From contig NZ_CP087724.1 in the NCBI RefSeq assembly GCF_024972755.1, positions 2,542,001 through 2,606,000 on the forward strand: DNA of 64,000 bases. Direction: 5' to 3'. This stretch comes from Halanaeroarchaeum sp. HSR-CO. GTDB lineage: Archaea > Halobacteriota > Halobacteria > Halobacteriales > Halobacteriaceae. Under the pieces are notes generated by a model. The model was not told the origin of the DNA and searched no databases. It worked only from the letters and a program-made list of their open reading frames with translations. This document shows, one piece after another, positions 12,721-24,810 of this stretch. Both the position numbers and the translations under genes were made by a program. Numbering within the stretch: position 1 is the stretch's first letter; the number at the start of each line of letters is the position of its first letter.

Positions 12721-13656
12721 ATGAGCCGACGGAAACCCGACTGGCTCAAGATGCGACCCCGGTCGGGACAGTCCTTCACGGACATCAAATCCTCCCTTCG
12801 CGAGCGAGACCTCCACACCGTCTGCGAGGAGGCCTCCTGTCCCAACATGGGCGAGTGCTGGTCTGGCGCCGACGGGCCCGGCACGGCCACGTTCATGCTG
12901 ATGGGCGAGCGCTGCTCCCGTGGCTGTAACTTCTGTGACGTCGAGACCGGCGGTATGGACCCCCTCGACGAACGGGAACCGGAGCGAGTGGCGGCGGCCG
13001 TCGCCGAGATCGACCTCGATTACGTCGTCCTCACCTCCGTGGACCGCGACGACCTGCCGGACCAGGGTGCGAGCCACTTCGCGGAGACCATCAGGGCGAT
13101 CAAACGGCGCCACCCGAGCGTCCTCGTCGAGGTCCTCATCCCGGACTTCCAGGGCGAACCGGACCTGGTCCGAAAGATCATCGATGCTGGCCCGGACGTC
13201 ATCGCCCACAACGTCGAGACGGTCGAGCGCCTCCAGTGGCCGGTCCGCGACCGACGGGCGGGCTACGAGCAGTCGCTGGGGGTCCTCGAGCAGGTCGACC
13301 GCGAGTCGGACGTCTACACCAAGACCTCGATCATGCTCGGCCTTGGCGAGTACGACCACGAGATCTACCGGACGATGGCGGACCTCCGCGAGGTGGGCGT
13401 CGACGTGGTCACCCTGGGCCAGTACCTTCGACCGTCGCCCAGCCACCTCGACGTCGAGGAGTACGTCCACCCCCAGAAGTTCGACACGTGGCGGCGAGTC
13501 GCCGAGGACGAACTCGACTTCCTGTACTGCGCCAGTGGACCGATGGTCCGCTCCTCCTACCGCGCCGGCGAACTGTTCGTGGAGGCGGTCCTCCAGGACG
13601 GGAAGACGGTAGAGGAGGCCCGCCAAGACGCGCGCACCGCCTCGGCGGGCCCCTGA
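12721..13656 (+). CDS. lipA: Lipoyl synthase
   Basis: This 311-aa radical-SAM enzyme inserts two sulfur atoms into octanoyl groups on lipoyl domains. The auxiliary cluster ligands are C35, C40 and C46 (CEEASCPNMGEC), the radical-SAM cluster is C65-x3-C69-x2-C72 (CSRGCNFC), and the C-terminal RSSY motif is present (GPMVRSSYRAGE). It lies just upstream of the PDH genes, whose E2 is its substrate. The ATG at 12721 is the only start that keeps the family-like MSRRKPDWLKM N-terminus. The divergent spacer to the helicase gene is 105 bp. Confidence 0.97.
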   Translation: MSRRKPDWLKMRPRSGQSFTDIKSSLRERDLHTVCEEASCPNMGECWSGADGPGTATFMLMGERCSRGCNFCDVETGGMDPLDEREPERVAAAVAEIDLDYVVLTSVDRDDLPDQGASHFAETIRAIKRRHPSVLVEVLIPDFQGEPDLVRKIIDAGPDVIAHNVETVERLQWPVRDRRAGYEQSLGVLEQVDRESDVYTKTSIMLGLGEYDHEIYRTMADLREVGVDVVTLGQYLRPSPSHLDVEEYVHPQKFDTWRRVAEDELDFLYCASGPMVRSSYRAGELFVEAVLQDGKTVEEARQDARTASAGP

Positions 13657-13865
13657 CCGAACGTCGAATCGGTCCCCCCGGACTCGGCGGCCTTCGTACA
13701 TTTGTCCGGAAAAATGCGCCAAGAGTGCGAATTATCAGCTTTTTCACCACACCAGTGGACGAAGGCGCGATAATACGTCTCGTGGGTGTACAGCACGAAT
13801 ATTGGTGACGAAAACCCTATAGTGTCAGGGGCGGGAGAGTGTACTATGTCAGGACGGGGGTTCCC
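13657..13865 (+). promoter_or_regulatory. Spacer and promoter region upstream of pdhA
   Basis: This 209-bp region is AT-richer than its surroundings. Two TATA-like cores are seen: GAATATTGG (13797-13805) and CCCTATAGTG (13816-13825). The second would start transcripts near 13845, at the ATG of a 7-codon frame that ends by overlapping the pdhA GTG. The exact promoter is not decided. Confidence 0.45.
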
Positions 13866-14978
13866 GTGACGTCGATCCTGCACCGCGACCCGGACAGTCG
13901 GGTACGAATTCTCGACGAAGACGGTTCGCTCGTGGACGGAGCGACCGAGCCGGACCTGGAGGACGAGCAGTTGGTCGAGATGTACCGGTACATGAAGCTC
14001 TCGCGGCACTTCGACCAGCGAGCGGTGAGTCTCCAGCGCCAGGGGCGCATGGGGACCTACCCGCCACTGTCGGGCCAGGAGGGTGCTCAGATCGCGAGCG
14101 CGTTCGCCCTCGACGACGAGGACTGGCTGTTCCCCAGTTATCGCGAACACGGCGCGGCACTGGTCCAGGGACTACCACTCGAGCAGACGTTGCTCTACTG
14201 GATGGGCAACGAGGAGGGCAACGCCATCGCGGAGGACACGAACCTCTTCACCGTGGCCGTCCCCATCGCCAGCCAGATCCCTCACGCCGTCGGCGCGGCC
14301 TGGGCGTCGAAGCTCAAAGACGAGGACAAATCGTTCATCGTCTACTTCGGCGACGGGGCGACCTCGGAGGGCGATTTCCACGAGGGGATGAACTTCGCGG
14401 GGGTCTTCGACACGCCGACTGTCTTCTTCTGCAACAACAACCAGTGGGCCATCTCGGTCCCCAGAGAACGGCAGACGGCCTCGAAGACCATCGCCCAGAA
14501 GGCGACGGCCTACGGCTTCGACGGCGTCCAGGTCGACGGCATGGACCCGCTGGCCGTCTATCAGGTGACCCGCGAGGCGGTGAAGAAGACGAAAGACCCC
14601 GAGGAAGACGAACTGCGGCCGACGCTCATCGAGGCGGTCCAGTACCGCTTCGGTGCCCACACGACCGCCGACGACCCGACAGTCTATCGCGACGAGGACG
14701 AGGTCGAACGGTGGAAGCAAAAGGACCCCATCCCGCGGCTGGAGACGTACCTCCTCGATACCGGCCGGTTGACCGAGGCGGACGTCGAGGCAATAACCGA
14801 GGAGGTCGAGACGGCGGTCGCCGACGCCATCGACACGGCCGAGAGCCACGAGCGGCCGGAACCGACCGCGATGTTCGAGCACGCCTACGAGACGATGCCC
14901 GAACACGTCCGCGATCAGCTGGAGACCTTCGAGACCATCCGAGAAACGTACGGCGACGACGCACTCCTGGAGGAATGA
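13866..14978 (+). CDS. pdhA: Pyruvate/2-oxoacid dehydrogenase E1 component, alpha subunit
   Basis: This 370-aa subunit binds thiamine diphosphate and decarboxylates a 2-oxoacid. The TPP motif runs from FGDGATSEGDFHEG to CNNNQWAIS. The N-terminal part RQGRMGTYPPLSGQEGAQI and the SYREHGAALVQG loop are those of PDH-type E1 alpha. The GTG at 13866 (MTSILHRDPDSRVRILDEDG) matches the usual haloarchaeal N-terminus better than the GTG at 13839. It is the first gene of pdhA-pdhB-pdhC-lpdA. Family membership is clear; the true 2-oxoacid substrate is not, because haloarchaea mainly use ferredoxin oxidoreductases for pyruvate. Confidence 0.93.
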   Translation: MTSILHRDPDSRVRILDEDGSLVDGATEPDLEDEQLVEMYRYMKLSRHFDQRAVSLQRQGRMGTYPPLSGQEGAQIASAFALDDEDWLFPSYREHGAALVQGLPLEQTLLYWMGNEEGNAIAEDTNLFTVAVPIASQIPHAVGAAWASKLKDEDKSFIVYFGDGATSEGDFHEGMNFAGVFDTPTVFFCNNNQWAISVPRERQTASKTIAQKATAYGFDGVQVDGMDPLAVYQVTREAVKKTKDPEEDELRPTLIEAVQYRFGAHTTADDPTVYRDEDEVERWKQKDPIPRLETYLLDTGRLTEADVEAITEEVETAVADAIDTAESHERPEPTAMFEHAYETMPEHVRDQLETFETIRETYGDDALLEE

Positions 14979-14979
14979 T

Positions 14980-15957
14980 ATGACCCAGAACCTCACCCTC
15001 GTTCAGGCGGTCAGCAATGGGTTGCACGACAAGATGGCCGAAGACGACGACGTCATCGTCATGGGCGAGGACGTCGGGAAGAACGGTGGCGTCTTCCGCG
15101 CCACGGAAGGCCTCTACGACGAATATGGCGACGAGCGGGTCATCGACACGCCGCTGGCGGAATCCGGCATCATCGGGACGGCCATCGGGATGGCCGCCTA
15201 CGGTCTGAAACCGGTTCCGGAGATCCAGTTCTCCGGGTTCATGTACCCGGCCTTCGACCAGATCGTGAGCCACGCCGCACGCCTGCGCACGCGGAGTCGC
15301 GGAAAGTACGAGGTACCGATGGTGCTGCGCGCCCCGATGGGCGGCGGCATCCGCGCTCCCGAGTCCCACTCGGAGTCCAAAGAAGCGTTCTACATCCACG
15401 AGGCTGGCCTCAAGGTCGTCATCCCGAGTACACCGCACGACACGAAGGGGTTGCTCATCTCCGCTATCGACGACCCCGACCCGGTCATCTTCCTCGAACC
15501 GAAGAAGATCTACCGCTCGTTCCGCGAGGAGGTCCCCGACGGAACCTACGAGGTCCCGCTGGGCGAGGCCGCCGTGCGCCGGGAAGGGACCGACATCTCG
15601 GTGTTCACCTGGGGGGCGATGACCCGCCCGACCCTGGAGGCCGCCGAGGACCTCGAGGAGGAGATAGATGTGGAGGTCGTCGACCTCCGGACGCTCTCGC
15701 CACTGGACACGGACGCCATCGTCGAGTCGTTCCAGAAGACGGGACGCGCGGCGGTCGTCCACGAGGCGCCCCGAACCGGCGGCCTCGGTGCGGAGATCAC
15801 CGCCATCATCCAGGAGGAGGCGCTCCTCTACCAGGAAGCACCGGTCAAGCGCATCACCGGGTTCGACGTTCCGTACCCGCTGTACGCGCTCGAGGACTAC
15901 TACCTCCCAGAGCCCGCCCGCATCGCACACGGCATCCGGGAGGCCGTGGACTTCTGA
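14980..15957 (+). CDS. pdhB: Pyruvate/2-oxoacid dehydrogenase E1 component, beta subunit
   Basis: This 325-aa subunit completes the alpha2-beta2 E1 active site. Typical signatures are VIVMGEDVGKNGGVFRATEG, DTPLAESGIIGTAIGMA and the GGGIRAPESHSES loop. The C-terminal half is the transketolase C-terminal fold (VEVVDLRTLSPLDTDAIV). The ATG follows pdhA by one base and the next gene starts 3 bp after the stop, showing a tight operon. Confidence 0.95.
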   Translation: MTQNLTLVQAVSNGLHDKMAEDDDVIVMGEDVGKNGGVFRATEGLYDEYGDERVIDTPLAESGIIGTAIGMAAYGLKPVPEIQFSGFMYPAFDQIVSHAARLRTRSRGKYEVPMVLRAPMGGGIRAPESHSESKEAFYIHEAGLKVVIPSTPHDTKGLLISAIDDPDPVIFLEPKKIYRSFREEVPDGTYEVPLGEAAVRREGTDISVFTWGAMTRPTLEAAEDLEEEIDVEVVDLRTLSPLDTDAIVESFQKTGRAAVVHEAPRTGGLGAEITAIIQEEALLYQEAPVKRITGFDVPYPLYALEDYYLPEPARIAHGIREAVDF

Positions 15958-15960
15958 GCC

Positions 15961-17454
15961 ATGCCCCGCGAATTCAAACTCCCCGACGTGGGCGAGGGCG
16001 TCGCCGAGGGCGAGATCGTCTCCTGGCTCGTCGAGGTCGGTGACCCGGTCTCCGAGGATCAGCCGGTCGCCGAGGTGGAGACCGACAAAGCCGTCGTCGA
16101 GGTCCCCTCCCCCGTGAACGGCACCGTCCAGGAGCTCCACTACGAGGCCGGCACCATGGTCGAGGTCGGCGAGGTCATCGTGACCTTCGCCCTCGAAGGC
16201 GAGGACGTCGCCGCGGCCCCAGCGCCGACTGACGATTCGGACGGGAAAGCGGCCGAAGCACCGGCCGACGCCGACGCCGCCGAAACCGCGGACGCGGAGA
16301 CAGCCGTGGAGTCGGCACCGGACACCGGCGGTCGCACCTTCGCCCCGCCGAGCGTTCGAACGCTGGCCCGCGAACTCGACGTCGACATCGGCGCAGTGAG
16401 CGGAACCGGTCCGAGCGGCCGGGTGACGGAGAGCGACGTCCGGGCCGCCGCGGACGGGGAAACGGTCGGCGAGGCGACGGAGGAGAAACCCGCCGCGGAA
16501 CCGGCAGCGGAACCCGGGACGACAGCAGAGACGCCACCAAGTTCCGAACCGGCCGCCGATCGCGACCGGACCCTGGCCGCACCCGCCACGCGAGGAGTCG
16601 CGAAGGACCTGGACGTCGACATCGACCAGGTGCCGGCCGTCGAACGGCGCGACGGCGAGGCGTTCGTGACCGCCGACGCGGTGCGCGAGTACGCCGAGGG
16701 CCAGCAGGCCGCCCAGGCCGCCGACGTGGCGACCGTCGCCGCCGGCGAGACGGGGCCGCGCGAGGAGCGCATCCCGTACAAGGGCGTCCGGAAGACCATC
16801 GGCGACAAGATGGAGGAGTCGAAGTACACCGCGCCCCACGTCACCCACCACGACACGGTGGACGTGACAGAACTCGTCGCGATGCGCGAACGGCTCAAAC
16901 CCCACGCCGAGGCGCAGGACGTCAGGCTGACCTACATGCCGTTCGTGATGAAGGCGGTCGTCGCCGCGCTGAAGGAGTTCCCCGAACTCAACAGTAGCCT
17001 CGACGAGGAGGCCGGCGAGGTCGTCCGCAAGCACTACTACAACATCGGCGTGGCCGTCGCGACCGAGGCCGGTCTCATGGTGCCGGTCGTCGACGACGTC
17101 GACGCGAAGTCGGTCCTCGAAATCGCCGAGGAGGTGAATCGGCTCGCCGAGGAGGCCCGCGAGCGCACCATCGCCCTCGAGGACCTCCAGGGAAGCACGT
17201 TCTCGATCACGAACTTCGGGGCCATCGGTGGCGAGTACGCGACGCCGATCATCAACTACCCCGAGGTCGGGATCCTCGGACTGGGTGCCATCGAGGAGCG
17301 ACCGGTCGCCGAAGACGGCGACGTCGTCGCGCGGCAGACGCTCCCGCTGTCGCTGTCCATCGATCACCGGATCGTCGACGGGGCGGACGCGGCCGCCTTC
17401 ACGAACGATGTAATGGGGTACCTTGAAACGCCCTCGCTACTCCTATTGAAATAA
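15961..17454 (+). CDS. pdhC: Dihydrolipoamide acyltransferase E2 of the PDH-type complex
   Basis: This 497-aa protein has, in order, one lipoyl domain (residues 1-80, lipoyl-lysine K43 in VETDKAVVEV), an Ala/Pro/Glu-rich linker, two peripheral-subunit-binding domains (about 120-160, APPSVRTLARELDVDIG; and about 205-245, APATRGVAKDLDVDID) and a catalytic acyltransferase domain from about 260. The latter ends with the active-site SIDHRIVDG. Two binding domains in one E2 are unusual compared with the single one in most bacteria. It overlaps the next gene by one base. LipA is encoded just upstream. Confidence 0.95.
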   Translation: MPREFKLPDVGEGVAEGEIVSWLVEVGDPVSEDQPVAEVETDKAVVEVPSPVNGTVQELHYEAGTMVEVGEVIVTFALEGEDVAAAPAPTDDSDGKAAEAPADADAAETADAETAVESAPDTGGRTFAPPSVRTLARELDVDIGAVSGTGPSGRVTESDVRAAADGETVGEATEEKPAAEPAAEPGTTAETPPSSEPAADRDRTLAAPATRGVAKDLDVDIDQVPAVERRDGEAFVTADAVREYAEGQQAAQAADVATVAAGETGPREERIPYKGVRKTIGDKMEESKYTAPHVTHHDTVDVTELVAMRERLKPHAEAQDVRLTYMPFVMKAVVAALKEFPELNSSLDEEAGEVVRKHYYNIGVAVATEAGLMVPVVDDVDAKSVLEIAEEVNRLAEEARERTIALEDLQGSTFSITNFGAIGGEYATPIINYPEVGILGLGAIEERPVAEDGDVVARQTLPLSLSIDHRIVDGADAAAFTNDVMGYLETPSLLLLK

Positions 17455-18878
17455 TGGTCGTCGGAGACGTCGCAACTGGAACGGAACTGGCTATCGTCGG
17501 TGCGGGATCGGGCGGCTACGTCGCCGCCATCCGCGCCGGCCAGCTCGGCCTGGACGTAACGCTCATCGAAGAAGACGCCATCGGTGGCGTCTGTCTGAAC
17601 TACGGCTGCATCCCTTCGAAAGCACTCATCAGCGCAACCGACGTGGCCCACGAGGCCGGAGACGCAGAAGAGATGGGCGTCTACGCCGATCCCGAGGTGC
17701 AGATGGACGAGATGAAGACCTGGAAGGACGGTGTCGTCGACCAGTTGACCGGGGGTGTCGAGAACCTCTGTGAGGCCAACGGCGTGAACGTCGTCGAGGG
17801 ACGCGCCGAGTTCGTGGACGAGAACACCCTCCGGGTCGCCCACGGGGGCGAAGGGCAAGGCTCGGAGTCCTACGAGTTCGAGCACGCCATCGTCGCCACC
17901 GGCTCGCGCCCCATCGAGGTCCCGGGCTTCGAGTTCGACGGCGAAACCGTGCTCTCATCGCGTGACGTCCTCGACCTCGAGACGATCCCGGACAGCGTCG
18001 TCGTGGTCGGCGCCGGATACATCGGAATGGAGCTCTCGACCGTGCTGGCGAAACTCGGAACCGACGTCCAGGTGGTGGAGATGCTGGACGACGTCCTCCC
18101 GGGGTACGAGTCGGATCTCGTGCGGCCGGTCAAGCGTCGGGCAGCGGACCTCGGCATCGAGTTCTCCTTCGGCGAGGCGGCGGCCGGCTGGGCGGAAACC
18201 GACGATGGCATCGTCGTCACCACGGAGACCGAGGAGGGCGAAGAATCGACCTACGAGGCAGAGAAAGCCATCGTCGCCGTGGGCCGAACACCGGTCACCG
18301 ACACCCTGAACCTCGAGGCGATCGGCCTGGAACCGAACGACGACGGCTTCCTCGAAACCGACCACGAGGCACGAACCGACGTCGATCACGTCTTCGCCAT
18401 CGGTGACGTCGCGGGTGAACCGATGCTGGCTCACAAGGCGAGCGCCGAGGGGGCGGTCGCCGCGGAGGTGATCGCCGGCGAGCCGTCGGCACTCGACCAC
18501 CAGGCCATCCCGGCTGCCGTCTTCACGGACCCGGAGATCGGGACCGTCGGAATGACCGAAGCCGAGGCCGAAGATGCCGGATTCGAGCCCGCCGTCGGGA
18601 AGTTCCGCTTCGGCGCGAACGGACGCGCTCTCACGACCGGGCACCCAGATGGGTTCGTCCGGATCGTGGCGGACGAGGACTCGGGTTTCGTCCTCGGCGC
18701 CCAGGTCGTCGGGCCGGACGCCTCGGAACTCATCGCAGAGCTGGGGCTGGCCGTCGAGATGGGGGCCACCCTCGAGGACGTGGCGCGCACCATCCACACC
18801 CACCCGACGCTCTCCGAGAGCGTCATGGAGGCCGCCGAACACGCTCTCGGGCACGCCATCCACACTCTTAATCGCTGA
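17454..18878 (+). CDS. lpdA: Dihydrolipoamide dehydrogenase (E3)
   Basis: This 474-aa flavoprotein reoxidises dihydrolipoamide with NAD+. The first FAD motif is AIVGAGSGGYVAAI, the redox disulfide is C47/C52 in GGVCLNYGCIPSK, the NAD motif is VVVGAGYIGMEL, the second FAD motif is VFAIGDVAGEP, and the C-terminal His-Glu base is in IHTHPTLSE. It is the only E3 gene in the window. It may therefore also serve the acoABC-like complex, whose cluster has no E3 of its own. Confidence 0.97.
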   Translation: MVVGDVATGTELAIVGAGSGGYVAAIRAGQLGLDVTLIEEDAIGGVCLNYGCIPSKALISATDVAHEAGDAEEMGVYADPEVQMDEMKTWKDGVVDQLTGGVENLCEANGVNVVEGRAEFVDENTLRVAHGGEGQGSESYEFEHAIVATGSRPIEVPGFEFDGETVLSSRDVLDLETIPDSVVVVGAGYIGMELSTVLAKLGTDVQVVEMLDDVLPGYESDLVRPVKRRAADLGIEFSFGEAAAGWAETDDGIVVTTETEEGEESTYEAEKAIVAVGRTPVTDTLNLEAIGLEPNDDGFLETDHEARTDVDHVFAIGDVAGEPMLAHKASAEGAVAAEVIAGEPSALDHQAIPAAVFTDPEIGTVGMTEAEAEDAGFEPAVGKFRFGANGRALTTGHPDGFVRIVADEDSGFVLGAQVVGPDASELIAELGLAVEMGATLEDVARTIHTHPTLSESVMEAAEHALGHAIHTLNR

Positions 18879-19763: not shown

Positions 19764-19897
19764 GAGGGGCTGCAGGCGACCCCGTAAGTTCGCCCGCTAC
19801 CCGAGCGACGGTCGATCTCGGGTCAGTCGACACCCACGCTGTCTGGCACTTTCTGTCGGTGGGATGCTATTATGGTGGTGGAGACCAACCGTCGAAT

Positions 19898-21718
19898 ATG
19901 GGCTACATCGTTCGGATGCCGAAACTCGGACTGGAGATGAAAGAGGGGACGGTCCTCGAGTGGCACGTCGACGTCTCGGGGGAGGTCGGTGAAGAAGAAC
20001 CGCTCCTGGATATCGAATCGGAGAAGACGACGAAGACCGTAGAAACGCGGGAAGCCGGCGTCCTGCGAGAGGTGTTCGTTCAGGCGGGGACGACAGTCGA
20101 GCCCGGCGCTCCGCTGGGAATCGTGGCCAGTCAGGACGCGGACGTCGAGGAACTGATTGCGGAGGCCGAGCAGGAACTCGACACGGGCGAGGCCGTGGGC
20201 AGCGCCGAACCGGCGGACGCGACCGCCCCCAGCAACGGTGGCGGGTCGGCGACCTCGACGGAAGCCGCAGCCGGCGACCAGCCGGACCGCGTGAGTCCCC
20301 GAGCGCAACAACGAGCCGACGAACTCGGCGTGTCACTCGCCGGCGTCGAGGGGACGGGGCCCGGCGGTGCCGTGACGGCCGAGGACGTGGAAGCGGCTGC
20401 CGAAGCCGGCGCCGCCGAACCCCGTGTCTCCCCGCGAGCACAACAGCGCGCCGACGAACTCGGCGTCGACCTCGCCACCGTCGAGGGGACGGGGCCGGAC
20501 GGAGCGATCACGGCCGAGGACGTGGAGGCGGCTGCCGAAGCTGGCGAGCCGGCCCAGGAGGCCCCGGCCGGTGCAGCGACGCGAACGGTCACCGAGCGGG
20601 AGACCTTCAGCGGGATGCGCTCGACGATCGCCCGCCGACTCGGCGAGAGTTATCGGAACGCCGTCCACGTGACGGTCCACCGCAGCGCGGACGCGACGGC
20701 CTTGCGGGAAGCGACGGCGGCAGCGGACGACGCGTTTGCAGCCGACGTATCGATGACCGACCTCCTGCTGGCGGCGCTCTCGGAGACGCTCTCGGAGTAC
20801 CCGGCATTCAATGCGACCTACGAAGACGGCGAACACATCCGCTACGAGGAGCACAACATCAACGTCGCCGTCGACGTCGATGCGGGGCTCGTGACACCGG
20901 TCGTGCCGGCCGTCGACGAGAAATCGATCGGCCAGATCGCCACGGTTCGCCGCGAGAAGGCCGAGAAGACGCTGGCGGGCGAGTACACGATGGACGACCT
21001 GAGCGGCGGGACATTCACGGTCTCGAATCTCGGTCACCTCGGCGTCGAATCGTTCGATCCGATCATCAACCCGCCCCAGATCGCGATTCTCGGCGTCGAC
21101 GCGCTGGACGAACGCGTCACCGTCGAGGACGGAACCGCCACCTCGCGACCGATCCTGCCGCTCGACCTGTCGTTCGATCATCGCGTCGTCGACGGGGCGG
21201 ACGCGGCACGGTTCCTCGATGCGCTCGTCGAGCGACTCGAGGACCCCTGGTCGCTACTCGTCGGTGACCAGGGAGACACGAGCGCGGAAGCGAGTGGGAC
21301 TGCGAGCACAACGGACGTGCCGACGGCGTTCGAAGACGCTCCACGTCGGGCAGTCACGATCAACGAACCGGGGACGGAGGGGACGTTCAGCCTGGGCGAG
21401 TACGAGTACCCGTTCGGCATCGAATCCGCTCCGACCCCGCCGGAGATCTTCCTCGGCTCGCTGCAGTCCTGTCTCGCGCTCACCCTTCGAAACGTGGCGA
21501 TGGAAGCGGGTCACGAACTCGGGAAAATCGACGTCGATGGGGCGATCAGACCCGAGTCCGGTTCGGTGGAGGCGGTCGAACTGCTAGTGGTCGTCGACGC
21601 CCCGTCGGTGGACGACGAGACGCTGACAGCCCTCGTCGACGAAGCAGAATCGCAGTGTCACGTCGCGTTACTCCTCCGCGAGGACCTTCCGGTGGAGATC
21701 TCCGTCGACCGACCGTAA
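19898..21718 (+). CDS. E2 acyltransferase fused to a C-terminal OsmC peroxidase-like domain
   Basis: The 606-aa protein has a lipoyl domain (1-78, lipoyl-lysine K43 in IESEKTTKTVE), two near-identical peripheral-subunit-binding domains (about 130-167 and 176-212, each starting RVSPRAQQRADELGV), and a catalytic acyltransferase domain (about 230-450, active site FDHRVVDGADAA). Then, from about 480, it has an OsmC/Ohr fold: APTPPEIFLGSLQSCLALTL with C525 and AESQCHVALLL with C587. The 62-residue Cys spacing fits the family. OsmC/Ohr enzymes are known lipoyl-dependent thiol peroxidases, so the E2's own lipoyl arm could reduce the fused domain. The ATG at 19898 begins the lipoyl domain correctly. 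The partner E1 genes lie just beyond, on the other strand. Confidence 0.92.
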   Translation: MGYIVRMPKLGLEMKEGTVLEWHVDVSGEVGEEEPLLDIESEKTTKTVETREAGVLREVFVQAGTTVEPGAPLGIVASQDADVEELIAEAEQELDTGEAVGSAEPADATAPSNGGGSATSTEAAAGDQPDRVSPRAQQRADELGVSLAGVEGTGPGGAVTAEDVEAAAEAGAAEPRVSPRAQQRADELGVDLATVEGTGPDGAITAEDVEAAAEAGEPAQEAPAGAATRTVTERETFSGMRSTIARRLGESYRNAVHVTVHRSADATALREATAAADDAFAADVSMTDLLLAALSETLSEYPAFNATYEDGEHIRYEEHNINVAVDVDAGLVTPVVPAVDEKSIGQIATVRREKAEKTLAGEYTMDDLSGGTFTVSNLGHLGVESFDPIINPPQIAILGVDALDERVTVEDGTATSRPILPLDLSFDHRVVDGADAARFLDALVERLEDPWSLLVGDQGDTSAEASGTASTTDVPTAFEDAPRRAVTINEPGTEGTFSLGEYEYPFGIESAPTPPEIFLGSLQSCLALTLRNVAMEAGHELGKIDVDGAIRPESGSVEAVELLVVVDAPSVDDETLTALVDEAESQCHVALLLREDLPVEISVDRP

Positions 21719-21788: not shown

Positions 21789-22754
21789 TTACTGGAACGG
21801 ACCGCGCTCGTATACGGCGTCCACGTCGATGAGCCGAACCGTCTCGGCGATGGGTCCGGCCTCGATCGTCGCGTTTTGCACTTCGACGTGTCGTTCGCCA
21901 TCGACACTGATCACGGCCTCGTCCACCGAGACGTCGATCGTCTCGCCAGGAGCCATCCGTTCGCACTTCTCGACGCCAACGGTATCGACGACCCCGGGCA
22001 TCGTGATGGCGCGGACCGTTCGGCTCGCGTCCGCAGCGACGGTGACGCCGGCGCCGTCATCGTCCGCAGCTTCGAGGGAAAGACAGCCTCCGACGATCCC
22101 GGAGAGGCCGACTTCGCCCTGACTGGCACGGGAGACGACGCCCGCGAGGTATTCGCTCGGATCCAGGACGGCGCGCGTCCCGACGAACGACCGATCGACG
22201 ATTCCCAGTGTCGCGACGCCCTGCACCGACCGATCGGATTCCTCGCCGTGGACCGTCGCTTCGACCATCGTATGGTCGGTGACGACGGTGTCGTCGACGG
22301 CACCGGTGGCGTACAGGGCCAGCGCGCCCCCAGCCACGGTTCCCTCGACGGGTGTCGGAACCACGTTGTTCGTCCCCGTGGAGAGCGCGAGCACGGGCGT
22401 CTCCGCGACGTTCATCGCGACGTCACGAACGGTGCCGTCCCCTCCCATGATCGCCATCGCGTCGACCTCCTCGGCCAGTCGTCGCGCGGCGCGCTGGGTG
22501 TCCCGTCTGGAGCCGGCGACGTCCATGTCCAGAAGCCGGGCGTCGCCGTCGTACTCCTCGATCGCCTGCTCGCCGATACCGGCGGCATCCGGCATCACAC
22601 GGACCGAAACGGGCTCCTCCTGAAGGGTAAGCCCTGAAACGATGGACGCGGCCACGCGCCGTTTCGCGTACGCGTCGCTCACACTCGCGCCACCGGCGAC
22701 GCGGCGAATGTCCCGCCCCGACGCCGGATTGACGATGAGACCGACCGTCGGCAC
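21789..22754 (-). CDS. acoX: AcoX-like protein of the ATP-NAD kinase family
   Basis: This 321-aa protein has the NAD-kinase/diacylglycerol-kinase fold signatures VGLIVNPASGRD, AIMGGDGTVRD and LALSTGTNNVVP. It sits 3 bp downstream of the E1 beta gene in the same operon. This domain, next to acetoin-type E1 genes, is the arrangement of bacterial AcoX, whose exact activity is unsettled. The last codons (RGPFQ stop) are followed by two degenerate echoes of the same bases. A kinase role is inferred from the fold. Confidence 0.85.
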   Translation of the reverse strand: MPTVGLIVNPASGRDIRRVAGGASVSDAYAKRRVAASIVSGLTLQEEPVSVRVMPDAAGIGEQAIEEYDGDARLLDMDVAGSRRDTQRAARRLAEEVDAMAIMGGDGTVRDVAMNVAETPVLALSTGTNNVVPTPVEGTVAGGALALYATGAVDDTVVTDHTMVEATVHGEESDRSVQGVATLGIVDRSFVGTRAVLDPSEYLAGVVSRASQGEVGLSGIVGGCLSLEAADDDGAGVTVAADASRTVRAITMPGVVDTVGVEKCERMAPGETIDVSVDEAVISVDGERHVEVQNATIEAGPIAETVRLIDVDAVYERGPFQ

Positions 22755-22757
22755 CGT

Positions 22758-23738
22758 CTAGACCACCCGTCTGACCGCCTCGACCACGTCCTCGGTGTGC
22801 GGGACGACCTCGTCTTCGAGCTCGGTCGCGAACGGGATGTGGGTGTCCGCGACGCCCACACGCTGGAGGGGCGCGTCGAGACTGTAGAACTCGTCCTCGA
22901 CGACGCGAGCCATGACCTCGGCGTGGGTGCCGTAGGAGAGGGGGCTCTCGTCCGCGACGACGAGCCGACCCGTCTTGCGGACGCTCTCGGTGATGGTGTC
23001 GGTGTCGAGTGGGTACAGGGACCGCAGGTCGATGACCTCCAGGTCGACGTCGCCGGCCAGTTCCTCGGCAGCTTCGAGCGACTCGCCGACCAGCCGCTGG
23101 GTCGCGGCCACGGTCACGTCGGCGCCCTCGCGCTCGACGTTTGCCTCGCCGATCGGGATCGTGAACTCGGAGTCGGTCGGGACCGGCCCGTCCTGCTCGT
23201 AGATCATCTTGTTCTCGAAGACGAACACCGGGTCATCGGATCGGATAGCGGATTTCGTCAGGCCCTTCGCGGCCCGGGGGGTCCCGGGAGCGACGGCTTT
23301 GAGTCCGGGGAAGTGCGCGATCCAGGTGTGCGGCGTGCCCGAGTGCTGGCTCGCCGCACCCTGGCCGCCACCCTCGGTGGTACGAATCGTGATCGGCATG
23401 TCCGTCTTCCCGCCGAACATGTACCGCATCTTCGCCATCTGGTTCGAGATCTGTTCCATCGCGACGCCCATGAAGTCGGAGAACATGAGCTCGACGACCG
23501 GTCGGGTGCCGGTCGCGGCCGCGCCGACCCCGGCGCCGGTGAATCCCGCTTCGCTGATTGGCGTGTCACGAACGCGTCGTTCGTCGAACTCCTCGAGAAG
23601 GCCCTCGGTGACGTTGAGCACACCGCCGTACTCGGCGACGTCTTCGCCCATGATGAAGACGTCCTCGTCTCGTTCCATCTCCTCGCGAAGTCCGGCACGG
23701 ATGGCCTCGCGAACCGTCATCGTTTCAGTTTCTGTCAT
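22758..23738 (-). CDS. acoB: Acetoin/2-oxoacid dehydrogenase E1 component, beta subunit
   Basis: This 326-aa second E1 beta has VFIMGEDVAEYGGVLNVTEG, DTPISEAGFTGAGVGAA and GGQGAASQHSGTPHTWIAHF, the last motif closer to acetoin-type than PDH-type E1 beta. The C-terminal transketolase fold (VDLEVIDLRSLYPLDTDTI) is intact. Its ATG overlaps the stop of the alpha gene (ATGA) and it ends 3 bp before acoX. The substrate is inferred from the neighbouring AcoX; branched-chain oxoacids remain possible. Confidence 0.88.
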   Translation of the reverse strand: MTETETMTVREAIRAGLREEMERDEDVFIMGEDVAEYGGVLNVTEGLLEEFDERRVRDTPISEAGFTGAGVGAAATGTRPVVELMFSDFMGVAMEQISNQMAKMRYMFGGKTDMPITIRTTEGGGQGAASQHSGTPHTWIAHFPGLKAVAPGTPRAAKGLTKSAIRSDDPVFVFENKMIYEQDGPVPTDSEFTIPIGEANVEREGADVTVAATQRLVGESLEAAEELAGDVDLEVIDLRSLYPLDTDTITESVRKTGRLVVADESPLSYGTHAEVMARVVEDEFYSLDAPLQRVGVADTHIPFATELEDEVVPHTEDVVEAVRRVV

Positions 23739-24778
23739 TGGCTGTCACCTCCACGTCCGTCGGCACGGAGATCGCCGACGAACCGTTCGATTTCCGGTGC
23801 CGGGTCCGCGAACATGTCCGTGTACGCGTCCTCTGGCGCGGGGCGTTCGGCGTCGCGAGCGAAGTCCACGGCAGCCTCGATCTCCGCCACTACCTCCTCG
23901 CGCATCGTCTGCAGTTCGTCCTCGTCGATGTCCCCGCGGTCGAGAAGTCGTTCCTCGAAGGAATCGATGGGATCTCGCTCCTCGCGCCATTCACTGACGT
24001 CCTCGTCGGTGCGGTACGCCTGCGGGTCGCCCTCGAAGTGCCCGCGGTAGCGATACGTCTCGGCCTCGATGAACGTCGGGCCGTCTCCGGCCAACGCGCG
24101 TTCTCTGGCCTCCGCGACGGCCTCGTATACCGCCGTCACGTCCATGCCGTCGACGGTGAACCCGGGGATGTCGTAGGCTTCCGCCGTCTCACTCAGGTTC
24201 TCGACGTTGTGCTGGTCTTCGACCGGCGTCCCCTCTCCGAAGTGGTTGTTCTCGACGACGTAGATTGCCGGCAGGTCCCAGGTGGCGGCGAGATTGATCG
24301 CCTCGTGTACCTGGCCCTGGGCGACGGCGCCGTCACCGAGGAATCCCAGTGCGACTTCGTCCGCGTCCCGATAGGACGCCGACAGTGCGGCGCCCGTCGC
24401 CATCGGCGGGCCGGCACCGACGATGCCGTTTGCGCCGAGCATGTTCGCGTCGACGTCTGCGATGTGCATCGATCCGCCCTTGCCGTTGTTGTACCCCTCT
24501 ACGCTCCCGAGTAGCTCGGCCATCATCAGCTTCGGGTCGAGCCCCTTCGCGATGGAGTGGCCGTGCCCTCGATGTGTGCTCGTAATGTAATCGCTTTCCT
24601 CTAGCGCACTGCATGCGCCGACACCCACGGCCTCTTCGCCGATGTACAGGTGAACGAAGCCGGGGATTTCCCCGTCAGCGAACATGTCACTCGCCGTCTC
24701 CTCGAACTCCCGAATCGTGAGCATTCGACGGAGAATCTCCGTTCGACCATCGGTGGTATCTATCGGTATCGAACCCAT
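23735..24778 (-). CDS. acoA: Acetoin/2-oxoacid dehydrogenase E1 component, alpha subunit
   Basis: This 347-aa TPP-binding subunit has the TPP motif GFLGDGAVAQGQVHEAINLA to ENNHFGEGTP. The STHRGHGHSIAKG loop and NGKGGSMHIAD are typical of acetoin/PDH-type E1 alpha. The start was set at the ATG at 24778 (MGSIPIDTTDG) rather than the ATG at 24805, because a TATA box (ATTTTATG, minus strand) lies exactly 25-32 bp upstream of 24778. It heads acoA-acoB-acoX, divergent from hsp20. Confidence 0.88.
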   Translation of the reverse strand: MGSIPIDTTDGRTEILRRMLTIREFEETASDMFADGEIPGFVHLYIGEEAVGVGACSALEESDYITSTHRGHGHSIAKGLDPKLMMAELLGSVEGYNNGKGGSMHIADVDANMLGANGIVGAGPPMATGAALSASYRDADEVALGFLGDGAVAQGQVHEAINLAATWDLPAIYVVENNHFGEGTPVEDQHNVENLSETAEAYDIPGFTVDGMDVTAVYEAVAEARERALAGDGPTFIEAETYRYRGHFEGDPQAYRTDEDVSEWREERDPIDSFEERLLDRGDIDEDELQTMREEVVAEIEAAVDFARDAERPAPEDAYTDMFADPAPEIERFVGDLRADGRGGDSQ

Positions 24779-24802
24779 ACGTGAAACATCCGTCCCGACC
24801 AC

Positions 24803-24810
24803 CATAAAAT
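24803..24810 (-). promoter_or_regulatory. TATA box of the acoA-acoB-acoX operon
   Basis: ATTTTATG on the minus strand at -25 to -32 from the ATG at 24778, consistent with a leaderless transcript. It overlaps the alternative upstream ATG at 24805, which argues against that start. Confidence 0.65.

What the first reader, a model, noticed from the sequence alone, without database searches (positions are those of the whole stretch)
19898..21718. E2 acyltransferase fused to an OsmC peroxidase-like domain
A lipoyl-carrying E2 has a complete OsmC domain at its C-terminus with both cysteines (about C525 and C587). OsmC/Ohr proteins are known lipoyl-dependent peroxidases that use lipoylated E2/E3 proteins as reductant. 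A fusion would put peroxidase, electron donor and the acyl-transfer machine in one chain, coupling 2-oxoacid or acetoin oxidation (via E3 and NADH) to hydroperoxide removal. I do not know of this architecture being described.
Basis: partly seen in the sequence, partly recalled or inferred. Interest (0 to 1): 0.75.

Follow-up and report, generated by a model that had tools for sequence, protein, structure and literature searches.

The report
Acetoin-type E2 enzyme with OsmC tail
In many salt-loving archaea the core enzyme of an acetoin-dehydrogenase-like complex carries an extra two-cysteine OsmC domain at its end; the fusion is real and evolutionarily old, but its active site lacks two residues of the known peroxidases, so its exact redox job is open.

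Summary
ORF 19898-21718 (+) is one uninterrupted 606-aa chain: lipoyl domain (K43), two tandem E3-binding domains, complete live E2 core (DHRVVDG) and an OsmC domain with C525 and C587. It is not an error: the fusion occurs in at least 48 of 391 sampled haloarchaeal genomes, nearly always convergent with acoA-acoB-acoX, as here (E1alpha, E1beta and AcoX at 21789-24805). Both cysteines and the lipoyl lysine are essentially invariant.

The peroxidase interpretation is only partly supported. The Arg and Glu that activate the peroxidatic cysteine in Ohr/OsmC are absent in 56 of 56 fused domains, a YhfA-like pattern. An OsmC-esterase fusion of similar type showed no peroxidase activity in the literature, and this genome has a separate canonical OsmC. 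Several lineages lost acoABX and the E2 core in place but kept a small lipoyl-OsmC protein. All ten such proteins keep both cysteines and all ten lost the lipoyl lysine, so the OsmC domain has a selected function that needs no lipoyl arm in cis.

Best reading: a thiol-redox module built into the E2, probably reduced by dihydrolipoyl groups and E3, acting on an unknown oxidised substrate. I found no description of the architecture. It is a new variant of a known kind.

The parts
19898..21718 (+). E2-OsmC fusion gene (606 aa from ATG 19898; an upstream GTG at 19859 is in the same frame)
19910..20119 (+). Lipoyl domain (residues 5-74), lipoyl lysine K43 at 20024-20026
   Evidence: Pfam PF00364; K43 conserved 47/48 (the other row lacks the N-terminus)
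20288..20392 (+). First E3/E1-binding (PSBD) domain, approximate borders
   Evidence: PF02817, two stretches; tandem repeat visible in the sequence
20423..20527 (+). Second E3/E1-binding (PSBD) domain (residues 176-210)
   Evidence: PF02817
20591..21259 (+). E2 acyltransferase core (residues 232-454), DHRVVDG intact (H428 at 21179-21181)
   Evidence: PF00198; DHR 48/48
21263..21346 (+). Disordered linker between E2 core and OsmC domain
   Evidence: pLDDT below 50 across most of it in the AF2 model
21347..21715 (+). OsmC-superfamily domain; Cp C525 at 21470-21472, Cr C587 at 21656-21658; Ohr Arg and Glu positions are not Arg/Glu
   Evidence: PF02566
21789..22754 (-). AcoX-like (ATP-NAD kinase/DAGK-fold) protein, convergent with the fusion gene
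   Evidence: Pfam; conserved next to the fusion; bacterial acetoin-operon homologues
22758..23738 (-). E1 beta (AcoB-like)
   Evidence: orthologues at 72% identity or more in about 80 of 391 genomes
23735..24805 (-). E1 alpha (AcoA-like)
12721..13656 (+). lipA, lipoyl synthase, upstream of the adjacent PDH operon (makes lipoylation of K43 plausible)
   Evidence: TIGR00510 368.9 bits; ORF; start codon
13839..18878 (+). Canonical 2-oxoacid dehydrogenase operon E1a-E1b-E2-E3; its E2 has no OsmC domain; its E3 (17454-18878) is a candidate partner

Best explanation
This is the E2 (lipoyl acyltransferase) of an AcoABX-type, acetoin-dehydrogenase-like complex of haloarchaea, to which a two-cysteine OsmC-superfamily domain has been permanently attached. 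SHOWN: the fusion, its age and spread, the link with acoABX, invariant cysteines and lipoyl lysine, absence of the Ohr/OsmC Arg and Glu, and selection on the OsmC domain even after the E2 core, acoABX and the lipoyl lysine are lost. INFERRED: the domain is a thiol-disulfide redox module. Oxidised Cp-Cr is re-reduced by dihydrolipoyl groups (its own swinging arm, neighbouring arms of the core, or other lipoylated proteins in trans), with E3 and NADH behind them, and the reduced pair acts on an oxidised small molecule or thiol (a disulfide, persulfide, or possibly an organic hydroperoxide) formed near the complex. The fusion concentrates that module at the complex and does not create an obligatory one-chain channel.
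For: Fusion in at least 48/391 genomes, nearly always beside and convergent with acoA-acoB-acoX; Cp and Cr 56/56, lipoyl K 47/48; OsmC fold with Cp in the long first helix and Cr at the second-helix kink; natural split in four genomes where OsmC is a separate gene beside acoA and the cluster E2 lacks it, a functional link even unfused; OsmC region under purifying selection (pairwise dN/dS 0.13-0.27 between fusions, 0.19-0.39 in comparisons with minis); lipA present; published precedent that Ohr/OsmC are reduced by lipoylated E2/E3 proteins (PMC8945050, read) and PDB entries of Ohr with dihydrolipoamide (6ebg, 6ebd); Paracoccus acetoin operons carry a CMD-family protein with CxxC-x3-H, as in AhpD-like dithiol proteins.
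Against: No biochemical evidence. Ten E2-less relatives keep OsmC but have lost the lipoyl lysine, so a cis arm is not needed there and a non-lipoyl reductant is possible. Type B clusters (live E2, same acoABX, no OsmC) show the complex can do without the domain. The substrate is unknown.
Confidence: 0.5

Rival explanations
1. One reading: the OsmC domain is a true lipoyl-dependent organic hydroperoxidase and the chain couples acetoin/2-oxoacid oxidation (through E3 and NADH) to peroxide removal.
For: Both catalytic cysteines invariant; OsmC fold; lipoyl arm in the same chain; lipoyl-dependent reduction is the established mechanism of Ohr/OsmC (PMC8945050, read).
Against: The Arg (Ohr R19) and Glu (Ohr E51) that position the peroxidatic thiolate (PMC5962072, read) are absent in 56/56 fused domains and 4/4 split genes; the Glu is absent in 10/10 minis and the Arg in 8/10. 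NCBIfam OsmC score 24.7 bits, far below cut-off. A bacterial esterase-OsmC fusion with both cysteines gave no peroxidase activity with H2O2 or cumene hydroperoxide (PMC5113044, read). The genome already has a canonical OsmC with Arg and Glu.
Confidence: 0.22
2. Redox switch or assembly module: OsmC proteins are dimers, so the tail links E2 trimers across two-fold axes, and its cysteines sense oxidation and gate complex assembly or activity; no catalytic turnover.
For: OsmC/Ohr are homodimers (established knowledge, PMC8945050); the tail follows a complete E2 core after a flexible linker; dithiol conserved without the peroxidase Arg/Glu.
Against: Several lineages kept the OsmC domain with both cysteines after losing the E2 core and acoABX, so its function is not only to serve this E2; type B complexes lack it.
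Confidence: 0.22
3. Vestigial or accidental fusion tolerated without function.
For: Lost in type B and repeatedly reshuffled.
Against: Both cysteines never lost in 70 domains; pairwise dN/dS well below 1; retained alone after loss of the rest.
Confidence: 0.04
4. Sequencing, assembly or frame artefact.
For: None found.
Against: Same continuous ORF in 47 other fetched genomes.
Confidence: 0.01

Closest known systems
Ohr/OsmC lipoyl-dependent peroxidases (e.g. Xylella fastidiosa Ohr, E. coli OsmC)
   Same: Fold; Cp and Cr cysteines; known to be reduced by lipoylated E2/E3 proteins and dihydrolipoamide
   Different: Lacks the catalytic Arg and Glu; Cr followed by His, not Pro; covalently fused to a lipoyl E2; scores far below the NCBIfam OsmC cut-off
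YhfA subfamily of OsmC-like proteins
   Same: Both cysteines kept, Arg and Glu missing (as described in PMC8945050)
   Different: YhfA proteins are free-standing; no activity is established for them; not shown here by a tree to be the direct source
OsmC-esterase family (alpha/beta hydrolase + C-terminal OsmC; PMC5113044)
   Different: Partner is a serine esterase, not a lipoyl E2; bacterial; no peroxidase activity detected
Bacterial acetoin dehydrogenase operon acoXABC (e.g. Paracoccus denitrificans, Mycetohabitans)
   Same: AcoX, AcoA, AcoB and a lipoyl-bearing E2 in one cluster
   Different: Bacterial AcoC is lipoyl + alpha/beta hydrolase; here a real E2 acyltransferase core with two PSBDs and OsmC
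PDH/OADH E2 (dihydrolipoyl acyltransferase)
   Same: Lipoyl-PSBD-catalytic core with HxxxDG
   Different: Tandem PSBDs and C-terminal OsmC domain

Membership tests
Ohr/OsmC peroxidase | OsmC fold | tested here: met
   PF02566; AF2 pLDDT 89; Foldseek top hits OsmC/Ohr-family structures, TMq 0.63-0.80 in the top ten
Ohr/OsmC peroxidase | Peroxidatic and resolving cysteines | tested here: met
   56/56 fused, 10/10 mini, 4/4 split
Ohr/OsmC peroxidase | Catalytic Arg (Ohr R19) | tested here: not met
   M/L/F/T/S or gap in 56/56 fused domains
Ohr/OsmC peroxidase | Catalytic Glu (Ohr E51) | tested here: not met
   V/P/I in 56/56
Ohr/OsmC peroxidase | Score above NCBIfam TIGR03562 cut-off | tested here: not met
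   24.7 bits against 85.8; the separate canonical OsmC of the genome 179.6
Ohr/OsmC peroxidase | Lipoamide-dependent hydroperoxide reduction | not testable with these tools
   needs enzyme assay
YhfA-like OsmC | Two Cys kept, Arg and Glu missing | tested here: met
   definition from PMC8945050
YhfA-like OsmC | Phylogenetic placement within YhfA | not tested
   no YhfA reference tree was built
2-oxoacid dehydrogenase E2 | Lipoyl domain with lipoyl lysine, PSBD, HxxxDG core | tested here: met
Acetoin dehydrogenase complex | acoA/acoB/acoX in one cluster with the E2 | tested here: met
   compared with annotated bacterial operons
Acetoin dehydrogenase complex | Substrate is acetoin | not testable with these tools
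   needs assay or genetics; distant H. volcanii E1 relatives have no proven substrate (PMC8305020)
OsmC-esterase fusion family | N-terminal serine esterase | tested here: not met
   no alpha/beta hydrolase domain in the protein

The most novel reading that the evidence does not exclude
Haloarchaeal acetoin-type dehydrogenases carry a built-in, lipoyl-serviced dithiol enzyme of the functionally undefined YhfA-like OsmC class, with a reaction not yet known for OsmC proteins. The repeatedly derived lipoyl-OsmC proteins without a lipoyl lysine are a second form of it that works in trans.
Probability: 0.35. Interest if true: 0.8.

Novelty: new variant of a known kind. Interest (0 to 1): 0.6.

Why it matters
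OsmC/Ohr proteins are known to draw electrons from lipoylated E2 proteins. Here evolution has fused the two, kept both redox centres invariant, and dropped the residues that make the known members peroxidases. That gives a concrete handle on the unknown function of YhfA-like OsmC domains, which also sit on bacterial esterases, and on why acetoin-type complexes gather extra thiol or hydrolase modules. The natural split, the repeated in-place reduction to lipoyl-OsmC, and the presence of a canonical OsmC in the same genome supply ready-made controls in tractable haloarchaea.

Tried and rejected
One search used a wrong reading frame (no fusion signal; ignored, but a useful negative control). The first genome-contig scan failed because the alignment was too divergent; a closer set worked. 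Artefact, frameshift and chance explanations were rejected by 47 independent genomes. tblastn of the window's OsmC domain found nothing on plasmids; a Natrialbaceae query found only free-standing or hydrolase-fused relatives among the annotated best hits, and the best hit, on a Halobacterium noricense plasmid, is a frame-broken remnant. The idea that the OsmC domain replaces the acyltransferase was rejected: all fused E2s keep DHR, while dead-core E2s go with an alpha/beta hydrolase instead. No paper describing the fusion was found (open-licence library only). Bacterial E2-OsmC fusions were not searched exhaustively.

Full report
Observation. Pfam gives Biotin_lipoyl 5-74, two E3_binding stretches, 2-oxoacid_dh 232-454 and OsmC 509-601, all above curated cut-offs. 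The lipoyl lysine is K43 (ESEK), the E2 motif DHRVVDG is intact, and the OsmC cysteines are C525 and C587, exactly as stated. Matches to solved E2 cores end near residue 454-455, so the OsmC domain is an addition after a complete E2 core. AlphaFold2 on 22 sequences gives a confident E2 core, a disordered linker, and a complete OsmC fold (b-b-b-a-b-b-a-b); C525 lies in the long first helix and C587 at the kink of the second. Foldseek's best matches are solved OsmC/Ohr-family structures.

Surroundings. Downstream and convergent on the - strand lie an AcoX-like protein (21789-22754), E1 beta (22758-23738) and E1 alpha (23735-24805). Upstream is a separate canonical E1a-E1b-E2-E3 operon (13839-18878), whose E2 has no OsmC domain, preceded by lipA (12721-13656). 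The AcoX-like protein is about 34% identical to the NAD-kinase-like protein that heads annotated bacterial acetoin operons (AcoX, E1a, E1b, AcoC; in Paracoccus also 2,3-butanediol dehydrogenase). 'Acetoin-type' therefore rests on gene content; the substrate is not proven.

Distribution. With the OsmC domain as query over 391 haloarchaeal genomes, I fetched the best loci and found the lipoyl-E2-OsmC fusion in 48 genomes, this one included, in at least four GTDB families. It is nearly always beside and convergent with acoA-acoB-acoX. Named examples include Natronococcus, Natronorubrum, Natrinema, Halobiforma, Halobellus and Halorubrum. A few fusions sit with a different E1 pair (L087, L090, L100). 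The E2-core tree clusters the fusions strongly and does not rule out one origin. Among 48 fusions the lipoyl lysine is kept in 47 (the other row lacks its N-terminus) and DHR in 48.

The active site is not that of a known peroxidase. Aligned to solved Ohr proteins, Cp and Cr are present in 56/56 fused, 10/10 mini and 4/4 split domains. The position of Ohr Arg19 is M/L/F/T/S (or a gap) and that of Ohr Glu51 is V/P/I in all 56 fused domains; Cr is followed by His in 52 of 56, where Ohr has Pro. Arg19 and Glu51 interact with the peroxidatic thiolate in Ohr (PMC5962072), and a review defines the YhfA subfamily as having both cysteines but lacking exactly these two residues, with unknown function (PMC8945050). 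An esterase with a C-terminal OsmC domain and both cysteines showed no peroxidase activity (PMC5113044). This genome has a separate canonical OsmC (179.6 bits against a cut-off of 85.8) whose sequence shows RGDG and NPEE; the fused domain scores 24.7 bits. So 'works with lipoyl electrons' stays plausible, but 'is a peroxidase' is not supported by sequence.

Natural experiments. (1) Split: in four genomes of one genus (Haloterrigena salina among them) OsmC is a separate gene beside and divergent from acoA, and the cluster E2 lacks it; that E2 has also lost DHRVVDG. (2) Reduction: in at least eight genomes acoAB orthologues are absent and a 218-305-aa protein remains. In the loci compared it stands in the same slot between the same neighbours (2-oxoacid:ferredoxin oxidoreductase genes on one side, PHP-domain and chorismate synthase genes on the other) and holds only a degraded lipoyl domain and the OsmC domain. 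The tree forces at least four changes for these 'mini' proteins, so the reduction probably happened repeatedly; the short alignment leaves many forks unresolved. All ten minis lost the lipoyl lysine and kept both OsmC cysteines; pairwise dN/dS of the OsmC part is 0.19-0.39, and of the lipoyl part 0.25-0.57. One further genome (G318) has both a mini and a full fusion. The OsmC domain therefore has a function that outlives the acyltransferase and does not need a lipoyl arm in cis. This counts against an obligatory one-chain channel and against a purely structural role.

Mechanism. Most likely the tail is a dithiol redox module kept close to dihydrolipoyl groups, which can re-reduce its Cp-Cr pair (established for Ohr/OsmC in trans), with E3/NADH as final donor; its oxidant is unknown. 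The lipoyl-to-OsmC step, the substrate and the quaternary arrangement are inference. Supporting but weak: Paracoccus acetoin operons encode a CMD-family protein with CxxC-x3-H, the pattern of AhpD-like lipoyl-linked dithiol proteins; Mycetohabitans instead has lipA there.

Side finding. Seventeen acoABX clusters carry an E2 whose core lost the HxxxDG motif; all seventeen, and none of the fusion or live-E2 clusters fetched, have an Abhydrolase_3 gene in the fetched cluster, in one case itself fused to a lipoyl domain. Bacterial AcoC is likewise lipoyl + alpha/beta hydrolase. This suggests that in those complexes a hydrolase handles the acyl-lipoyl product.

Limits. The literature library holds open-licence papers only. 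Taxonomic reach outside Halobacteria was not exhaustively tested. No coordinates were available to measure Cp-Cr distance. No biochemistry exists.

Noticed in passing
L125-L136, L140, L073, L076, L077, L079 (acoABX clusters): All 17 clusters whose E2 lost the catalytic HxxxDG motif carry an Abhydrolase_3 gene (53-76% identical to the Halocatena one); none of the fetched clusters with a live E2 does. Suggests that a hydrolase replaced the acyltransferase, as in bacterial AcoC.
   Followed up: partly
L127:9332-10948 (-): A lipoyl domain fused to an Abhydrolase_3 domain beside acoABX, an archaeal AcoC-like architecture.
   Followed up: partly
L057, L062, L066, L067, L068, L086, L088, L094, L095, L112: Lipoyl-OsmC mini proteins without E2 core; all lost the lipoyl lysine and keep both OsmC cysteines; in the compared loci they stand in the syntenic slot of the fusion gene.
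   Followed up: yes
window 20288-20527: Two near-identical tandem E3/E1-binding domains in one E2 chain, conserved in most fusions and in the dead-core E2s; possibly one for E1 and one for E3.
   Followed up: no
G093 (same genus as the window's genome): No lipA hit although the lipoyl-E2-OsmC fusion is present; lipoate may be scavenged or another lipoyl synthase used.
   Followed up: no
L087, L100, L090: E2-OsmC fusions in clusters with different E1 pairs (42-54% identical), so the fusion is not confined to the AcoX-type cluster.
   Followed up: no
L157:6001-6404 (Halobacterium noricense plasmid): Frame-broken remnant of a related OsmC domain beside metal-resistance genes.
   Followed up: partly
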